A DNA stretch of 9,848 bases from NCBI GenBank assembly GCA_021846065.1, contig JAJZCP010000035.1:1-9848 (forward strand), written 5' to 3'. The stretch is from Acidobacteriota bacterium. Lineage in GTDB: Bacteria > Acidobacteriota > Terriglobia > Terriglobales > Acidobacteriaceae. Below the pieces are notes generated by a model that was not told the origin of the DNA, did not search any database, and worked only from the letters and a program-made list of their open reading frames with translations. A program made the translations under genes and the position numbers. This document shows positions 1,600 to 9,848 of this stretch, piece after piece; position 1 is the stretch's first letter; each line of letters opens with the position of its first letter.

Positions 1600-2784
1600 A
1601 TGGAAGAGGCAGTGATTGTAAGCGCGGTGCGAACGGCAGTGGGCCGATCGGGCAAAGGCGTCTTTGCAACAACGCGACCGGAAGACCTGGCTGCGGCGGC
1701 AGTGCATGGCGCGCTGAATCGCGTGCCTGCGCTGGAGCCAGCGATGCTGGACGATGTGGTCTTTGGCTGCGCGCTGCCGGAGGGCGAGCAGGGATGGAAT
1801 ATTGCGCGGTACATCGTGCTGCGCGCCGGATTGCCGGTGGAGGTGAGCGCGATGACGGTGAATCGGCTGTGCGCCTCCGGTCTGGAGGCGATTGCGCAGG
1901 CGGCGATGCGCGTGCAGACCGGAGTGGCGCGCGCGGTGCTGGCCGGCGGCGTGGAATCGATGAGCATGATTCCGATGAGCGGCAACAAGCCGAGTCCGAA
2001 TCCGTGGCTTGCGGAACACTATCCCGCCGCGCTGCTGACGATGGGACTGACGGCAGAGCGCGTGGCGCGGCACTACAACGTTAGCCGCGAGGATCAGGAC
2101 GCATTTGCAATGGAAAGCCATCGACGCGCGCTGGCGGCGCAGGCGGATAATCGCTTCGCCGAAGAGATTGTTCCGGTCACGGTGGAGCGAGTGACCCAAG
2201 CGACAAATTCAACGAAGACGAAGACGGAGCAGAGTACGGTGAGCGTCGATGAAGGCCCGCGCGCTGACACTTCACTGGAAGCGCTGGCAAAGCTGAAGCC
2301 GGCGTTTCAGGCAGGCGGCAGCGTGACGGCCGGAAACAGTTCGCAGACCTCCGACGGCGCAGCGGCCAATGTGGTGATGAGCAAGACCCACGCAAAGAAA
2401 TTGGGTTTGCAGCCTCTTGCGCGGTTTGTTGGCTTCTCTACGGCTGGCTGCCTGCCGGAGGAGATGGGCGCAGGACCGATCTTTGCCATTCCGAAGGTGC
2501 TGCGGCAATGTGGCATGAAGCTGGATCAGATTGACCGCATTGAGCTGAATGAAGCCTTCGCCGCGCAGTCGCTTGCGGTCATTCGCGAACTGGATATGGA
2601 CCCTGCGCGCGTCAACGTGAATGGCGGGGCCATTGCACTAGGCCATCCGCTCGGCTGCACCGGCTCCAAGCTGACGGCAACGTTGCTGAGCGAGTTGCGG
2701 CGCAGCCGCTCGCGCTATGGCATGGTGACGATGTGCGTCGGCGGCGGGATGGGCGCTGCGGCTATCTTTGAGAATCTGATGTAG
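1600..2784 (+). CDS. fadA: Acetyl-CoA acyltransferase (3-ketoacyl-CoA thiolase)
   Basis: This thiolase of 394 residues, the usual family length, performs the last beta-oxidation step by cleaving 3-ketoacyl-CoA with CoA to acetyl-CoA and a shortened acyl-CoA. The nucleophilic Cys91 is in [11 protein letters not shown], followed by GGVESMS at about 116-122. NEAFA is at about 317-321, His349 is in [14 protein letters not shown], and the second catalytic Cys379 is in [10 protein letters not shown]. All the expected catalytic residues are present. The reading frame is open from an ATG at 1567, but I choose the ATG at 1600: it has a strong AAGGGGG ribosome site 7 nt upstream and gives a family-typical N-terminus ([15 protein letters not shown]). 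A Thr/Lys-rich loop (about 197-212) precedes the conserved DEGPR segment. It is the last gene of the fadN operon here; no acyl-CoA dehydrogenase follows. Its last 23 bases overlap the end of the pectinase gene on the other strand. Confidence 0.95.
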
Positions 2785-5155
2785 CGCTTTGGCTGCGAGC
2801 AGCCAGCACAGCCTGCGGGTTCCAGTGGTCAGCGCCGGCAAGAAAGCGCATGGGTTCAAATTGCGCCGCCTGCTGCGGCGTCAACTGATGCGTGTGCGGA
2901 TCACGGGCTTTGGGTGAGCCGCCCGGGCCGCGCGAGTCGAACTCGGCATAGTAGGCCGTGTCGAGCGAGTGAGTCTTTCCCGGTGACCACTCACGCCAGC
3001 CAGCCCGATCGATGTGCGCACCCATCCACGTGTGCAGATAGATCACCGTGGAGTAGGGTCTCCACGGCCGTCCCAGATAGACATCGCCCGTCTCGGCAGG
3101 ATCGCCACTGAGTCTGCACTGGTTGAGCACATAGCCGGAGTCTTCCCCAGGGTAATGCTTCGATTGCGCTGTGACAAAGCCGCCGCGATGCGGCGTGCTG
3201 TGAATCACGCAGTGATCGAAGACAGCCTTTCCATCGCCAAAGATGAAATCGACATTGCCTTCGATGTAACAGTCGGAGAAGTATTGCCGCGCCGGAGTGC
3301 AACTGGCTCCGTCTGGATTGCAGTTGCGGCTGCCGGCGTAGAGCGTGTCCTGATTGCCGAGCATGCGGACGTTGTGAAAGATCGCGCGGTCGCCTTTGAC
3401 CAGCAACGCAACGGCCTGCGAGCCTTCGGATTGTTGCGAGTGGGTGCGGTTGAAGTCGTTGGCGAAGGTGATGTTTTCGGCGAGAAAGTTATCGGCAAGA
3501 ATATTTACGGTGGCCGAGTGGGTGGTGCCGCCGTTGGCGCCGGCGCTGTGATCGTTGACGACGACGGTTGCCTCCGGTCCGCTGCCAGCGCCGCGCAGCG
3601 TGAGATTCGACTTGAGGACTGTGACAATCTCGCGATAGGTACCAGGAGCAATCTGCACGACGGCTCCATCGGCTGGCGCAGCGTCGAGCGCCTGCTGGAT
3701 GGAGGAATAATCGCCGCTGCCGTCGACTGCGACATAGAGCGTCCGATCCGTGGCAGGGACTGCGCCGGCCATCTCCGGAGCGGTTGCAAGCGAAGGAAAT
3801 ACGGGGAACCGCGCGGAGCAGTCCAGCGCATGACCGGACTTCGCTCCGGGCACATCCTTCGTCTGCACATCGTCGCCGGAGGGAAGCAGATTCCCGCGGC
3901 GAGGACCGATGGAAACGGCAGCGTGAGCGGCCTCCCATCGTCCGTGCTGCGAATCGAAAGCGAAGACATTGTCGAGCGTGAGCGCGAGGCGATGCTGCGC
4001 GTCCAGGCCATCCAGGGTTGAGCGACCGCCGCCGTCGATGGTGACGTCGCTAAGCGTGATGTCGCGATACTCCGGCAAGAGGCTGCCGGAGCGCGTGGTG
4101 TAGACAGGGCTGAAGACCAGAGGATGCGCAATCTGTCGCATGCACACGTTCTCATAACGAACGTCGGTGACCATGCCGCCGCGGCTGCGATCCGACTTGA
4201 TGCGAATGCCGTTGTCGGCGCCGTCGATGCTGAGGTCGCTGACCAGCATGTGATCGACACCGCCGTTGGTTTCGCTGCCGATCGACATGCCGTGCCCGGT
4301 GAAGAAGTGGTTGTGCGTAACGGAGATGTGCGACATCGGTCCGCTGCCGTTGGCCTTGACCGCAACGTTGTCATCGCCGACGTGAATCCAGCAGTGCGTG
4401 ATGGTCACATTCTGCGAAGAGATGGGATCGATGCCGTCGGTGTTGCGCGCGGTCTTCGGCGTCATGACCTTCACGCCCCATGCGGTGAAGCCGTTCGTGT
4501 TGTTGACTGCGACATGGAAGCCGGGTGAGTTGCGAAGCGTGATGTTGTAGAGCGTGAAGTTGTCCGCGTGGCGCAGAATCATCATCCAGGGAACGCTTTG
4601 GTTGAGGTCGCGTAGCTTGGCCTCATGCGCCAGATCCCACCATGTCTCGTGCTGGCTTAGCAGCACTGCGCCGCCGCGTCCGTCGATTGCGCCGTCTCCC
4701 ATCACACCGCTGTCGATTGCATGATCGGCGAGAATCAGCGGCTTGCATCCGTGCCCTTTTTTGTTGACGACGCCACAGCTTCCAGGCGAAAGATCATAGA
4801 CGCGCGGATCGCGCGAGCCGACAAGAACCGTGTTGGCATCCACAACCAGCGTGACTCCGGAACGAAGCTGCAAAGGACCACTGAGAAACACCTGATTCTC
4901 ACCGGAAGCACGCAGCACAACGGCGTGGCCTGGAGCGCAGTGGTCGATCGCGGCCTGAATGCGGGCCGTATCAAGCTGCCGCTCATCGGCATCGCGGAGC
5001 CGTCCGCGGTCCGTATGCAGATGCGCATCAAGTACGATGCAGGCGGGCGGTTGGTGTGGCTCGGTGACCATGCGCGTATCCTGAGCGCACGCCGTGGCAC
5101 CGCAAGCCGTCGCGATCAGTCCTGTTGAAACCAGTGCTACGAACCAGATGCGCAT
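2762..5155 (-). CDS. Secreted bifunctional pectinase: GH28 polygalacturonase plus CE8 pectin methylesterase
   Basis: A 797-residue exported enzyme with two parallel-beta-helix catalytic domains. Residues 1-25 are a signal peptide (MRIWFVALVSTGLIATA, probable cleavage after ACA). The N-terminal domain (about 35-400) is GH28 with every signature: NTDGIDP (Asn238, Asp240), GDDN (Asp261, Asp262), TGHGMSIGSE (His288) and RIK (Arg318, Lys320). After a linker (about 430-470), the CE8 domain (about 473-740) begins at YVAVDGSGDYSSIQ. It has Gln580 in EGSQAVAL, Gln602-Asp603 in GNQDTLY, Asp636 in GNVDFIFGD, and Arg696/Trp698 in LGRPWRPYS, the full catalytic set. It should remove methyl esters from pectin and hydrolyse the resulting polygalacturonate in the periplasm or outside. 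The start at 5155 is chosen because a perfect AGGAGG sits 6 nt upstream; the frame extends to a TTG at 5194 without such support. Divergent to the second GH28 gene. Confidence 0.93.
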   Translation of the reverse strand: MRIWFVALVSTGLIATACGATACAQDTRMVTEPHQPPACIVLDAHLHTDRGRLRDADERQLDTARIQAAIDHCAPGHAVVLRASGENQVFLSGPLQLRSGVTLVVDANTVLVGSRDPRVYDLSPGSCGVVNKKGHGCKPLILADHAIDSGVMGDGAIDGRGGAVLLSQHETWWDLAHEAKLRDLNQSVPWMMILRHADNFTLYNITLRNSPGFHVAVNNTNGFTAWGVKVMTPKTARNTDGIDPISSQNVTITHCWIHVGDDNVAVKANGSGPMSHISVTHNHFFTGHGMSIGSETNGGVDHMLVSDLSIDGADNGIRIKSDRSRGGMVTDVRYENVCMRQIAHPLVFSPVYTTRSGSLLPEYRDITLSDVTIDGGGRSTLDGLDAQHRLALTLDNVFAFDSQHGRWEAAHAAVSIGPRRGNLLPSGDDVQTKDVPGAKSGHALDCSARFPVFPSLATAPEMAGAVPATDRTLYVAVDGSGDYSSIQQALDAAPADGAVVQIAPGTYREIVTVLKSNLTLRGAGSGPEATVVVNDHSAGANGGTTHSATVNILADNFLAENITFANDFNRTHSQQSEGSQAVALLVKGDRAIFHNVRMLGNQDTLYAGSRNCNPDGASCTPARQYFSDCYIEGNVDFIFGDGKAVFDHCVIHSTPHRGGFVTAQSKHYPGEDSGYVLNQCRLSGDPAETGDVYLGRPWRPYSTVIYLHTWMGAHIDRAGWREWSPGKTHSLDTAYYAEFDSRGPGGSPKARDPHTHQLTPQQAAQFEPMRFLAGADHWNPQAVLAARSQSATSDSQR

Positions 5156-5161
5156 CGGAAG

Positions 5162-5167
5162 CCTCCT
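5162..5167 (-). promoter_or_regulatory. Shine-Dalgarno of the GH28-CE8 gene
   Basis: A perfect AGGAGG on the minus strand (CCTCCT on plus) lies 6 nt before the ATG at 5155-5153. It settles that start over the in-frame TTG at 5194. Confidence 0.85.
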
Positions 5168-5250
5168 GACTATCCGTGGAAAGAAGACAGGCAATGGGTT
5201 GACGCGCAGACTTTCTCGGCTTCATGTGGACAGACCTCTTGCGCTCTACC

Positions 5251-6940: not shown

Positions 6941-7711
6941 TTACTGATTGACGCCGCTGGCAAGGAATCCGCCATCGACGACGAGGGTTTGCCCGGTGAC
7001 AAAGGAAGCGGCATCGGAGGCCAGATAGACCGCGGCTCCGATCAGCTCCTCCGTGCGTCCGAAGCGGCCCATGGGCGTGCGCAGGAGCAGCTCCTGACCG
7101 CGCGGCGTGCTATCGAGCAAGGCAGCGTTCAGCTCTGTGCGAAAGACTCCGGGAGCGATGGCGTTGACGTTGACGCCCTCGCGCGACCACTCGACGGCGA
7201 GCGAACGGGTGAGCGATGCGACGGCGGCTTTGCTGGCAGCGTAGGCGGCGACCTCTTTGAGAGCGACGAAGCTGTTGAGCGATGCGATGTTAATGATGCG
7301 TCCGGAGTGGTTGGCAAGCATGTGCGCGCCGAAGACCTGGCAGGCGCGCAGCGTGCCGGTGAGGTTGGTGTTCAGGATGTCCTCCCACTCGGCCTCGGGT
7401 TGGGTAAGGGTGGGAGTGCGCTTGATCTTTCCGGCGCAGTTGATGAGGATGTCCACCTTGCCCAAAGCAGCGACGGTTGAGGCCAGCAGCGCATCGAGCG
7501 AGCCACGGTCACAGACGTCGGAGGTGAGGCGGAGAGTGCGACGTCCGCGCGCTTCAATGGCTGCGGCCGCATCCTCGACCTGTTGTGCGCGACGAGCGGT
7601 GGCGACGACATCGGCTCCGGCCTCGGCGAGACCGAGACTGAGCGCGAGGCCGATGCCGGACGTTCCGCCGGTGACGACGGCCACTTTGCCTTCCAGACTC
7701 ATGCTTTGCAT
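6941..7711 (-). CDS. SDR-family oxidoreductase, possible independent translation product inside the fused frame
   Basis: The ATG at 7711 is in frame with the kinase but is preceded by its own ribosome site, and would give a 256-residue dehydrogenase, the standard length of a single-domain SDR (about 250). The next in-frame ATG at 7702 is too far from that site. All catalytic residues (Ser, Tyr, Lys) are included. Candidate activities are fructuronate reductase, gluconate 5-dehydrogenase or 2-deoxy-gluconate 3-dehydrogenase; sequence reading alone cannot separate these. As I recall, Thermotoga maritima also carries uxaE close to SDR genes and a gluconate kinase in a pectin locus, which supports a role in uronate or gluconate use. 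Confidence 0.55.
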   Translation of the reverse strand: MQSMSLEGKVAVVTGGTSGIGLALSLGLAEAGADVVATARRAQQVEDAAAAIEARGRRTLRLTSDVCDRGSLDALLASTVAALGKVDILINCAGKIKRTPTLTQPEAEWEDILNTNLTGTLRACQVFGAHMLANHSGRIINIASLNSFVALKEVAAYAASKAAVASLTRSLAVEWSREGVNVNAIAPGVFRTELNAALLDSTPRGQELLLRTPMGRFGRTEELIGAAVYLASDAASFVTGQTLVVDGGFLASGVNQ

Positions 7712-8230
7712 TGGTACTCCTCTCCGGTGTTCAGCTGAGATTGATTGAATACGCTGAAGAATTTCAGCCACTGTTTCTTCCGGCGTTCCAGCGACAGAGA
7801 CACGCCACGCGTCCTGCGGCTCTTCCAGAGTGGCAAGCTGGCTGGGCAACAGACCCGGATTCATGTACTCGTGTTTGCGCGCCAGGATGCGCTGCTCGAT
7901 GAGGGCTGGCGGGGCATGGAGCAGGACGAAACGCATCTGGCCCGGAGCGAAGCCGCGGGCAAGCTCTTCGCGAGCCATGGCGCGGAGCGCCGAGCAGGCA
8001 AGAATGGCTGACTGCTGTTGTCCCACGTGCTGCGCCATGCGATCGTGCAGAGTGCGCAGCCACGGCAGGCGATCCTCGTCGGTGAGAGGAATGCCGGAGG
8101 CCATCTTGCGACGATTGGCCTCGGAGTGATAATCGTCGGCATCTTCAAATTGCCAGCCAGTGCGAGCGGCCAGCAACTTGCCGACGGTAGTCTTGCCGAT
8201 TCCACTGACACCCATCAGAACAAGAATCAT
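6941..8230 (-). CDS. Fused GntK-type sugar-acid kinase and SDR-family oxidoreductase
   Basis: A single 429-codon frame encodes two normally separate cytoplasmic enzymes. Residues 1-165 are a gluconokinase-like kinase with a P-loop (GVSGIGKTT, 7-15), DADDYH (30-35), KMASGIPLTDEDR (42-54) and ACSALR (78-83), close to E. coli GntK in length and motifs. Residues 177-425 are a classical short-chain dehydrogenase: TGGTSGIG (187-194), NCAG (264-267), Ser317 in IASLNS, Tyr330 and Lys334 in YAASK, and APGVFRTE (359-366). ATARR after the second strand hints at NADP(H) use. The nearest families I recall are gluconate 5-dehydrogenase and KduD-like enzymes. Context suggests sugar-acid reduction, possibly fructuronate to mannonate. 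The start ATG overlaps the uxaE stop as ATGA (8227-8230). The linker (166-176) contains a complete ribosome site and ATG for the dehydrogenase, so two products may be made. Confidence 0.85.
   Translation of the reverse strand: MILVLMGVSGIGKTTVGKLLAARTGWQFEDADDYHSEANRRKMASGIPLTDEDRLPWLRTLHDRMAQHVGQQQSAILACSALRAMAREELARGFAPGQMRFVLLHAPPALIEQRILARKHEYMNPGLLPSQLATLEEPQDAWRVSVAGTPEETVAEILQRIQSISAEHRRGVPMQSMSLEGKVAVVTGGTSGIGLALSLGLAEAGADVVATARRAQQVEDAAAAIEARGRRTLRLTSDVCDRGSLDALLASTVAALGKVDILINCAGKIKRTPTLTQPEAEWEDILNTNLTGTLRACQVFGAHMLANHSGRIINIASLNSFVALKEVAAYAASKAAVASLTRSLAVEWSREGVNVNAIAPGVFRTELNAALLDSTPRGQELLLRTPMGRFGRTEELIGAAVYLASDAASFVTGQTLVVDGGFLASGVNQ
7717..7725 (-). promoter_or_regulatory. Internal Shine-Dalgarno for the dehydrogenase part
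   Basis: GGAGAGGAG on the minus strand ends 5 nt before the ATG at 7711. It is as strong as the site of the other genes here and lies in the linker between two complete enzymes. It implies that the dehydrogenase was, or still is, translated separately. Confidence 0.7.
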
Positions 8231-9495
8231 GAGGCTCGCCCCAGAAAGACCGGAGCGATGTGCCGGTCGAAGAGATTTTCGGTTACGTTGCGAGCGATGA
8301 TGGCTTCATGGTCGCGCAGCAGAGCGAGGTATCGGTCGCCCATCTTCGCTGCGATCTTGAATCCGACGTGGAGCAACTGACGAAAGCTGGGGTTATAGCC
8401 CGGCGCGCTCTGGACGTGTCGCAACGCTTCGGTATATTGCGCTGAACTCCAGGATGCGACGAGAGCGGGCGCAGGCAGATACGCAGGATCAATGTCGATC
8501 ACAGTGGCGTAGGGAGCACAGAGTTCCGCCTGATGCGCGAAAGCTTCGCGGTAAATTTCCTTGGCGAGCATGAGAGCTTCGCCACCCGCTTCGGCGAGTC
8601 CGATCAGCTCTTCGAGCCATGTGGTGCCTGCGGTTTTGAGGTGGACTCCGGCACCGAGCCGCTGCATGGTGCGATGAATGGCGGGATAGATGGAGAACTT
8701 GTCGCTGCCGGAGTGAACGCTGAGCTTGAGCGTGGCGGGCAGTCCGAAGTGTCGGACGGCGTAGGCGATGGCAGCGATGTCGAGTGCGAATTCACGCTCG
8801 AACTGGACGACGTCGCCGACGTAATCGACGCCTTTGTTGAAGCGTCCGCTGAACTTGGGCGCGATGGTCTGCACGGGAATGCCTTCATCGGCGATTGCGG
8901 CGAGAATGAGAAGTAACTCAACCGGAGACTGCGCGGCGTCGGTCTCATCCATCGAAACCTCGGGCAGAAAATTCCCTTCGCCTTTGACGGCGAGAATGTG
9001 CCGATAGACGGAGCCAGCCTGCTGCACGGCGGCCAGATATTTCTCTGCCGTGGCGCGCAGTGTTTGAGCGGTGATGAAGAACTTTTCTTCCGTGCCAGGC
9101 AGTGCAATCTCGCCGATCAGATTTGCGTGACGCGCGGCAAATGCGGCTACATCCTGCGAAGCGGCAGGCTTGCCGATGGCATCAGCGACATCGATGGTGT
9201 AAAAGTCGCAGGCATCGACAAAGCGATCCACGGTTTGCAGCGTGATGTGGTCCGCGTCACAGAAATAAGCACCTTTCCAGCCGAGCGACTGAACGGCTGC
9301 ATCGGCAGCGCGGCGCACCGAGGTTGGCTCCGAGCCAATGATGAGGTGCTCGCGGTTGGATTTATTCCAGACCGGAGTGACTTCCACATCGGCTTGCAGC
9401 GCCTGAATGCAAGCCTGTAACTGCGCCTTTGCCTGATGCGCGAAACGGTCGCCCGTTCCAATGGAATACCTACCCAATAATTTTTGTATCGCCAC
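8227..9495 (-). CDS. uxaE: Tagaturonate epimerase (UxaE family)
   Basis: A 422-residue cytoplasmic protein that I recognise as the UxaE family, which interconverts D-tagaturonate and D-fructuronate and so joins galacturonate catabolism to the mannonate/KDG branch without the UxaB/UxaA altronate steps. Recognisable segments are GDRFAHQ (15-21), YFCDADHI (77-84), KGEGNFLPEVSMDET (171-185), KFSGRFNKGVDYVGD (214-228), LSVHSGSDKFSIYP (258-271), HLKTAGTTWLEE (285-296) and the tail KMGDRYLALL with NVTENLFDRHI. Conserved His, Asp and Glu residues in these are plausible metal or catalytic ligands, but I cannot assign them. It begins with GTG at 9495, preceded by AGGAGAGGA about 8 nt upstream, and overlaps the end of the upstream gene by 26 nt. 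Its TGA overlaps the ATG of the kinase gene. Both overlaps point to one coupled operon. Confidence 0.85.
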   Translation of the reverse strand: MAIQKLLGRYSIGTGDRFAHQAKAQLQACIQALQADVEVTPVWNKSNREHLIIGSEPTSVRRAADAAVQSLGWKGAYFCDADHITLQTVDRFVDACDFYTIDVADAIGKPAASQDVAAFAARHANLIGEIALPGTEEKFFITAQTLRATAEKYLAAVQQAGSVYRHILAVKGEGNFLPEVSMDETDAAQSPVELLLILAAIADEGIPVQTIAPKFSGRFNKGVDYVGDVVQFEREFALDIAAIAYAVRHFGLPATLKLSVHSGSDKFSIYPAIHRTMQRLGAGVHLKTAGTTWLEELIGLAEAGGEALMLAKEIYREAFAHQAELCAPYATVIDIDPAYLPAPALVASWSSAQYTEALRHVQSAPGYNPSFRQLLHVGFKIAAKMGDRYLALLRDHEAIIARNVTENLFDRHIAPVFLGRAS

Positions 9496-9848
9496 CTGAG
9501 TTTTCCTCTCCTAATCTGCTTGGGTGCGCCCAGAGTCCAAGTCCTGGATTGGCAATAAAGAAAACATCTTCTCCGGCGACACGGTTATAGCCCGCGTTCA
9601 TCTTCTCCGGCTGGTAAATCTCCAGCATACGGTCGAGTTCGCCGAAAGCGAATCCTACGCCTTCCACTTCAGCGCGGGAGAGATGGCCCGGACACCAGGT
9701 GATGCGGAACCGTCCTTCCGCCGAGCCGTGGATCAGATGCGCCGCCGCGCTTAGATCGGCGGCAAGCTCAGGATTCTCCGCAACCGCCTTCAGCGTTGCC
9801 GGAGTGCCAAAGTAGCCATACTTGCGAATCAGCCGATCAATCGTCTTG
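9470..9848 (-). CDS. C-terminal end of an uncertain protein, tentatively LarA/DUF2088-like (5' part beyond window edge)
   Basis: The minus-strand frame is open from the window edge to a TAG at 9472-9470, giving the last 125 residues of a protein. Visible landmarks are KYGYFGTPATLKAVAENPEL near the start, ITWCPGHLSRAEVEGVGFAF in the middle, and FFIANPGLGLWA near the end. There is no signal peptide or membrane segment in this part. The middle and end remind me of C-termini of the lactate-racemase-like (LarA, DUF2088) family, some members of which act on other hydroxy acids, but I am not sure. Its frame is genuine: it runs into the uxaE start with a 26-nt overlap, as expected in a tight operon, and its base use matches the neighbours. 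The operon promoter must lie further upstream, outside the window. Confidence 0.6.
   Translation of the reverse strand, partial: KTIDRLIRKYGYFGTPATLKAVAENPELAADLSAAAHLIHGSAEGRFRITWCPGHLSRAEVEGVGFAFGELDRMLEIYQPEKMNAGYNRVAGEDVFFIANPGLGLWAHPSRLGEENSGGDTKIIG

What the first reader, a model, noticed from the sequence alone, without database searches (positions are those of the whole stretch)
7690..7760. In-frame kinase-dehydrogenase fusion that still carries an intergenic-like junction
Both enzymes are complete and in one frame, but between them lie a strong GGAGAGGAG site and an ATG 5 nt later, the hallmarks of a gene start. The other frames close nearby: a TGA at 7733-7731, 19 nt before that ATG, and another TGA at 7701-7699 overlapping the second Met codon. 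A tandem CAATCAAT (minus strand, 7747-7740) just upstream is a likely slippage site. This looks like a two-gene operon turned into a fusion by a small indel or stop loss, possibly giving both a fusion and a free dehydrogenase. A one-base assembly error could mimic it.
Basis: partly seen in the sequence, partly recalled or inferred. Interest (0 to 1): 0.72.

Follow-up and report, generated by a model that had tools for sequence, protein, structure and literature searches.

The report
Kinase-dehydrogenase fusion keeping its internal start
Two neighbouring sugar-acid genes, separate in the seven close relatives that could be read, run as one gene here but keep the second gene's own start signals, and more distant relatives appear to have fused the same pair independently.

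Summary
Window 6941-8230 (-) encodes 429 aa: GntK/IdnK-type kinase (1-166), 7-residue linker, SDR dehydrogenase (174-429), with GGAGAGGAG and ATG still at the junction. In 7 of 7 same-genus relatives readable across the junction the genes are separate. The closest (G151) ends its kinase at ...QSISA-stop; the window keeps a displaced TGA exactly there, which fits a one-base deletion. CAATCAAT aligns without a gap, so it is not the indel site. An assembly slip cannot be excluded: no second copy of this species was found. But six neighbouring genes are frame-intact against G151, and the same fusion exists elsewhere (two other genomes; 84 of 120 listed public proteins). A linker-free tree needs 6 fusion-state changes, at least 4 on strongly supported branches. 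84 of 87 fused rows keep a Met at the dehydrogenase start; in the largest fused clade the hypervariable linker has fixed islands, Arg-Gly and then Met, as expected of a buried ribosome-binding site and start codon. Best reading: a recent operon-to-fusion event in a pectin/galacturonate operon, making fused protein and probably free dehydrogenase. Dual product and substrates are inferred, not shown.

The parts
6941..8230 (-). Fused ORF, 429 aa (GntK/IdnK-type kinase + SDR dehydrogenase)
   Evidence: the window is part of G000 contig C35 (same assembly)
7733..8230 (-). Kinase part, residues 1-166; Walker A-like GVSGIGKTT (motif recalled)
   Evidence: TIGR01313 141 bits over cut-off 113.75; dN/dS 0.05-0.13 against six relatives, dS saturated in several
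7712..7732 (-). Linker EHRRGVP (residues 167-173), translated former intergenic DNA
   Evidence: comparison with separate-gene relatives; pLDDT under 50 at residues 166-177
7731..7733 (-). Out-of-frame TGA at the position of the relatives' kinase stop (G151 ...ISA-TAA); likely the old stop, displaced by a one-base deletion
7717..7725 (-). Retained Shine-Dalgarno-like GGAGAGGAG
   Evidence: G151/L040 has AGAGAGGAG before its SDR start
7709..7711 (-). Retained ATG of the dehydrogenase gene (Met174); second ATG at 7702-7700
   Evidence: the matching ATG starts the separate gene in relatives
6941..7711 (-). SDR part, 256 aa if started at Met174; TGGTSGIG, NCAG, Ser317/Tyr330/Lys334 (motifs recalled)
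   Evidence: PF13561 199.9 bits; NF005559 217 over 215; dN/dS 0.02-0.08; column conservation
8227..9495 (-). UxaE-like tagaturonate epimerase, overlaps the kinase start (ATGA)
   Evidence: PF16257 170 bits
9470..9847 (-). C-terminal part of a LarA-type nickel-dependent putative hexonate epimerase, cut by the contig end
   Evidence: NF052594 146.5 bits, profile 304-411; positions 4-344 are on contig C90
5484..6842 (+). Polygalacturonase-like protein (pectin context)
   Evidence: NF051860 235.8 bits, below its cut-off of 600
2762..5194 (-). Polygalacturonase-pectinesterase-like two-domain protein, 810 aa (pectin context)
   Evidence: both below curated cut-offs; also 810 aa in relative L145

Best explanation
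The ORF is a derived, in-frame fusion of two ancestrally separate adjacent operon genes, a GntK-type hexonate kinase and an SDR dehydrogenase (likely the fructuronate reductase of a galacturonate route). The kinase lost its stop, most simply by a one-base deletion in GC(N)TGA, and ribosomes now read through. The dehydrogenase's ribosome-binding site and ATG were kept, so the transcript probably yields the 429-residue bifunctional protein and, by internal initiation at Met174, free dehydrogenase. Shown: the sequence, the two-gene state in relatives, retention of the start signals, recurrence of the fusion. Inferred: that this MAG's sequence is correct, dual translation, substrates.
For: Separate genes in 7 of 7 readable same-genus genomes: L038, L040, L041, L042, L043, L044, L046 (G-handle copies). 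Window and L040 are sisters (100/97) inside the genus clade of otherwise separate genes. Old stop visible out of frame. Both halves under purifying selection, but this largely predates the fusion. Same fusion in G019 and G417 and in 84 of the 120 listed public proteins, P0004 and P0008 among them being the same proteins as in G019 and G417. Met kept at the SDR start in 84 of 87 fused rows. Clade B2 (32 rows after 95% dedup): Arg -21 and Gly -20 show 4 and 1 changes and Met -16 none, against 10-18 in the 12 other linker columns from -30 to -17. The 8 residues before the Met position can encode an SD match of 5 or more nt in 94% of 47 fused rows, against 36% of 385 other Met and 39% of shuffled linkers. 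LarA, UxaE, GntK and SDR lie in one row with UxaC and a transporter in L043.
Against: No second copy of this species: nearest fused public protein has 64% kinase identity; nearest separate kinase 91% in G151, 88% in the protein collection. No DNA for clade B2, so its Shine-Dalgarno is inferred from amino acids, and Met could be kept as part of the conserved SDR N-terminus. For matches of 6 or more nt the encodability test shows no excess (15% in all three sets), and in B2 alone it is below the shuffles (3% against 16%). P0009, P0010 and P0022 lack the Met; in clade A the Met column shows 3 changes, one of them a one-residue shift in L009. G019's internal site is weaker (-6.6; 16% of background as strong). 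The 47 rows are few independent lineages.
Confidence: 0.68

Rival explanations
1. Assembly or consensus artefact: the organism has two separate genes with a TGA after the kinase, and the MAG lost one base at the junction.
For: The alignment puts a single-base gap exactly at the old stop; only one assembly of the species was found, and its LarA gene is split between contigs C35 and C90.
Against: Six neighbouring genes each give one unbroken match with G151 over 9.8 kb at 88% identity; the site is no homopolymer run; the same fusion exists in other genomes.
Confidence: 0.2
2. Plain fusion: only the 429-residue protein is made; the Shine-Dalgarno and ATG are relics that have not yet decayed.
For: The window's fusion is young on the tree; clade A members P0009 and P0010 have lost the Met and stay fused.
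Against: In clade B2 Met and Arg-Gly stay nearly fixed next to a hypervariable linker; internal signals remain in L009 and L119 DNA.
Confidence: 0.2
3. The pair is an L-idonate/5-ketogluconate module: the SDR is a gluconate 5-dehydrogenase or KduD rather than fructuronate reductase (this concerns substrates and can hold together with the fusion reading).
For: Best profile hits include KduD and gluconate 5-dehydrogenase; best solved-structure match is a gluconate 5-dehydrogenase, 5u9p.
Against: Scores lie below the KduD and gluconate 5-dehydrogenase cut-offs, though also below the D-mannonate oxidoreductase cut-off. The neighbours are UxaE and a LarA hexonate epimerase, with UxaC in relative L043. 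The family of canonical fructuronate reductase (PF08125; that UxuB belongs there is recalled) is missing in 10 of 10 genomes searched, leaving that step open.
Confidence: 0.25

Closest known systems
GntK/IdnK-type gluconokinase (TIGR01313) fused to other domains, e.g. 6-phosphogluconate dehydrogenase (listed proteins P0104, P0113)
   Same: Kinase family above its cut-off; another enzyme of sugar-acid use fused to it
   Different: The partner here is an SDR dehydrogenase, and the SDR's own start signals remain at the junction
Public GntK-SDR fusions (P0001-P0011 and others; sources call them 'carbohydrate kinase (thermoresistant glucokinase family)' or 'glucose 1-dehydrogenase [Acidisarcina sp.]')
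   Same: Same domains and order, most of 427-452 aa
   Different: By tree the window fusion is a separate event; the AU test against a joint clade with clade A alone is only narrow (p 0.0435)
Hexuronate route with UxaE, fructuronate reductase, GntE and GntK proposed for Thermotoga (Rodionova 2012, known to me only as recounted in passages of PMC6978723 and as a reference in PMC7583248)
   Same: UxaE, a LarA-type hexonate epimerase and GntK in one locus, UxaC too in L043; PMC6978723 recounts gntE homologues in Acidobacterium and Terriglobus
   Different: An SDR stands where the mannitol-dehydrogenase-type UxuB would be (recalled), and is fused to the kinase here
Lactobacillus suebicus mannonate kinase / 6-phosphomannonate 2-epimerase route (PMC6978723, passages)
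   Same: A GntK-like kinase is proposed to act after fructuronate reduction
   Different: Whether this kinase takes mannonate or gluconate is untested

Membership tests
GntK/IdnK-type gluconokinase | TIGR01313 above cut-off | tested here: met
   141 against 113.75 bits; the equivalog PRK11545 is not reached (100 against 265)
GntK/IdnK-type gluconokinase | Phosphorylates gluconate | not testable with these tools
   needs an enzyme assay
Classical SDR dehydrogenase | Rossmann TGxxxGxG, NAG, Ser-Tyr-Lys | tested here: met
   PF13561 199.9 and PF00106 186.6 bits; motifs read
KduD | TIGR01832 above cut-off | tested here: not met
   246.4 against 338.85 bits
SDR D-mannonate oxidoreductase (NF006132) | Profile above cut-off | tested here: not met
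   221.9 against 281 bits; function proposed from context only
Operon-derived gene fusion | Orthologues adjacent but separate in relatives at the same locus | tested here: met
   7 of 7 readable same-genus genomes; synteny with L145
Dual-product gene with internal translation start | Internal SD and ATG at the start of the second domain | tested here: met
Dual-product gene with internal translation start | Both proteins observed | not testable with these tools
   needs Western blot or mass spectrometry

The most novel reading that the evidence does not exclude
GntK-SDR fusion is a recurrent, selected solution in Acidobacteriaceae: several independent fusions are dual-product genes whose linker is constrained as DNA, not as protein, because it carries a functioning internal ribosome-binding site (Arg-Gly...Met in one lineage, Glu...Met in another). 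The fused enzymes work on consecutive steps, the kinase acting directly on the SDR's product mannonate, with the hexonate epimerase acting afterwards.
Probability: 0.25. Interest if true: 0.66.

Novelty: new variant of a known kind. Interest (0 to 1): 0.45.

Why it matters
Fusions of operon neighbours are usually seen only after the fact. Here the separate-gene state, a fresh fusion with the old stop still visible and deeper fused clades can be compared in one bacterial family, so one can ask directly whether a fusion keeps supplying the free enzyme through the old start site. It also points to an SDR as the missing fructuronate-reductase step in acidobacterial pectin use.

Tried and rejected
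CAATCAAT as the slippage site: rejected, relatives align through it without a gap. One common origin of all fusions: rejected by tree and AU test (p 7.7e-82). Window plus clade A as one clade: p 0.0435 with the group named after seeing the tree, so weak on its own; nesting and synteny carry the point. B1 plus B2 as one clade: not rejected (p 0.419), so they may be one event with a later split. Parsimony cannot tell gains from losses. First tree kept linker columns and was replaced; that tree has long rows (L036, L010, P0010) whose places are unsure, and L121 is gappy.

Rows dropped: duplicate loci of the same genome; listed proteins of 395 aa or less or without the SDR glycine motif, so two shorter ones with SDR domains, P0015 (352 aa) and P0053 (376 aa), are not counted as fusions; 43 of 121 rows as near-copies; window and P0022 in the encodability test. 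P0241, found later, is a further clade A-like protein and is in no count.

Independent evidence of this species: none found in public proteins or viral contigs (P0019 as query); the protein listings show neither the window's own protein nor a kinase as near as G151's, so absence there is weak. Clade B DNA: no stop-free full-length match besides G000, G019 and G417 among rows listed for 397 genomes, none in 62 genomes of the nearest genus. G417 is the only one of 80 genomes of its genus, and G019 of 2, with the fusion at E <= 1e-145. UxuA as a discriminator: mixed, a PF03786 match in 6 of 10 genomes, among them G000, but none in G019, G417, G174 or G283. LarA group 18 is above cut-off in 9 of 10 genomes but not in the fused G019 (191 against 500 bits), which is against one shared pathway for all fusions. 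G102 of the same genus has the kinase but no SDR in 4.5 kb around it.

Literature: one search (gluconokinase, fusion, gluconate 5-dehydrogenase) gave 0 papers; one search (gene fusion, internal translation initiation, Shine-Dalgarno, bifunctional) gave 0; one search (gluconokinase, bifunctional, gene fusion) gave 4 with unrelated titles; one search gave 38, of which 12 were listed; a find in one of these, PMC4921024, for gluconate, glucono, hexuronate and short-chain dehydrogenase gave nothing; one search gave 3 papers, none with such a fusion in title or start of abstract. The library holds open-licence papers only, and no paper was read whole.

Full report
What is there. On the minus strand 8230 to 6941 is one open frame of 429 codons. 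Residues 1-166 are a GntK/IdnK-type kinase (TIGR01313, 141 bits over a cut-off of 113.75), residues 174-429 a classical SDR dehydrogenase (PF13561 199.9 bits), best like KduD and gluconate 5-dehydrogenase but below those families' cut-offs. The window lies at the end of contig C35 of a MAG, 88% complete, 107 contigs.

Ancestral state. Of 15 genomes of the window's genus, 9 have the kinase at E <= 1e-40, G000 included. Of the 8 others, 7 could be read across the junction and all 7 have two genes; the eighth, G102, has no SDR near its kinase. Kinase stops lie 8 to 141 nt before the SDR reference codon, and in three (L042, L043, L044) stop and start overlap as ATGA. The closest relative G151 (L040/L145) reads ...CAATCCATTTCTGCATAA..., the window ...CAATCAATCTCAGC-TGAAC...; the aligner leaves one gap right at the stop. 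So the window's out-of-frame TGA at 7733-7731 is most simply the old stop, put out of frame by a one-base deletion; a stop-codon substitution plus an intergenic length change is possible too. The repeat CAATCAAT is not the changed place.

Real or artefact. The window aligns to G151 over 9.8 kb at 88% identity, and six other genes each give one unbroken protein match (the crotonase from residue 21, where L145 begins). No other assembly of this species turned up in what was searched: the best public fused protein has 64% identity in the kinase part, the best separate kinase 91% in G151. The protein listings show neither the window's protein nor a kinase as near as G151's (best 88%), so their silence says little. 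The artefact reading stays open at about 0.2.

The fusion recurs. In one search (398 genomes of the family) only G000 and G019 show the full-length match without a stop among the rows listed (the list was cut at low scores); (397 genomes, largely the same by their handles) adds G417. Of 1436 public candidates 351 matched the kinase part; 120 were listed, and 84 of these are kinase-SDR proteins over 395 aa, including the G019 and G417 proteins themselves (P0004, P0008). A careful tree on linker-free columns (78 rows after removing near-copies from 121) needs 6 changes between fused and separate, at least 4 on starred branches, 5-6 over bootstraps. Clear fused lineages are the window, clade A (G019, G417, P0001-P0010), clade B1 and clade B2; P0011 and P0022 stand alone. 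Holding all fused rows together is rejected (p 7.7e-82), holding window and clade A together only narrowly (p 0.0435), B1 with B2 not at all (p 0.419).

The buried start. 84 of 87 fused rows have a Met at the SDR start (81 at -16 from GGTSGIG, L009 and P0004 at -15, the window at -14 and -11); P0009, P0010 and P0022 do not. In clade B2 the 12 linker columns -30 to -22 and -19 to -17 show 10 to 18 changes each on the tree, while Arg -21 shows 4, Gly -20 shows 1 and Met -16 none. Met adjoins the conserved SDR N-terminus (-15 shows 1 change, -14 shows 3), so Met alone proves little; the Arg-Gly island is the stronger sign. Arg-Gly in the frame AGR-GGN is what a GAGAGG site, common before the separate relatives' starts, can read as. 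In clade A the steady linker residues are Gly -26 (0 changes) and Glu -19 (1), Met -16 shows 3, and the two clade A DNA sequences carry ACGGAGAAAGAAATCATG (L009) and AGGGAGAACGAGATG (L119). Over 47 fused rows (window and P0022 left out) the 8 residues before the Met position can encode an SD match of at least 5 nt in 94%, against 36% at 385 other Met and 39% in shuffled linkers; for 6 nt there is no difference (15% in all three), and in B2 alone 6-nt matches are rarer than in shuffles (3% against 16%). These rows are few lineages, so this is suggestive, not a probability. Measured on DNA, the window's site (-8.6) resembles the starts of relatives (34 separate starts, mean -7.8); L119 has -8.0, L009 -6.6.

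Context and mechanism. Upstream of the kinase lie a UxaE-like epimerase (overlapping ATGA) and a LarA-type putative hexonate epimerase cut by the contig end; its other part is on C90. Relative L043 shows uronate isomerase (named glucuronate isomerase by its profile), MFS transporter, LarA group 18, a UxaE-like frame (by likeness to the window's, not scanned), GntK and SDR in a row. PMC7583248 (passages) shows groups 19 and 20 of LarA homologues turning D-mannonate into D-gluconate and supposes a hexonate for group 18. PMC6978723 (passages) recounts the proposed route mannonate to gluconate to 6-phosphogluconate, with gntE homologues in Acidobacterium and Terriglobus, and shows mannonate kinase activity in L. 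suebicus cell extracts. The family of canonical fructuronate reductase (PF08125) has no match in 10 of 10 genomes searched, so the SDR is the natural candidate for that step (inference). G019's fused gene sits near a transporter and 6-phosphogluconate dehydrogenase, as expected if the kinase makes 6-phosphogluconate, but G019 has no LarA group 18 above cut-off, and G000 does hold a UxuA match, so a second route is open to it. The AlphaFold2 model (44 sequences) has a fair kinase fold, a low-confidence linker (166-177) and a poor C-terminal SDR part, mean pLDDT 72, pTM 0.49, so nothing is built on it.

Verdict. Real observation, interpretation supported, assembly error still possible for this one genome. 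The wider finding, repeated fusion of the same operon pair with the second gene's start signals kept, is the interesting part and is testable with simple laboratory constructs. Numbers mended on re-checking the calls did not require a change of odds.

Noticed in passing
L038 / G044:C3:7246-7356, between kinase stop and SDR start: A 111-nt element with matching inverted ends (GAGCGTGTTTCAT...ATGAAACACGCTC) sits between the two genes in G044; similar elements are dispersed in the genus (13 matches in G000, 13 in G044, 4 in G151, 1 in G234). MITE- or REP-like.
   Followed up: partly
2762-5194 (-): An 810-aa polygalacturonase plus pectinesterase-like two-domain protein, another joining of pathway neighbours, with the same length in relative L145.
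   Followed up: no
P0003 and P0010 (clade A fusions): The SDR active-site segment YAASK reads FAASA and YGASA, so the SDR half may be losing catalysis in some fused proteins; P0010 has also lost the internal Met.
   Followed up: no
9470-9847 (-) and G000 C90:1-1020: The LarA-type hexonate epimerase gene is split over two contig ends with overlapping profile positions 304-344: an assembly break about 2 kb from the junction.
   Followed up: partly
listed proteins: GntK-type kinases are also found joined to MFS transporters (PF07690), to PF16798 and to 6-phosphogluconate dehydrogenase in public proteins, so the family looks fusion-prone.
   Followed up: no
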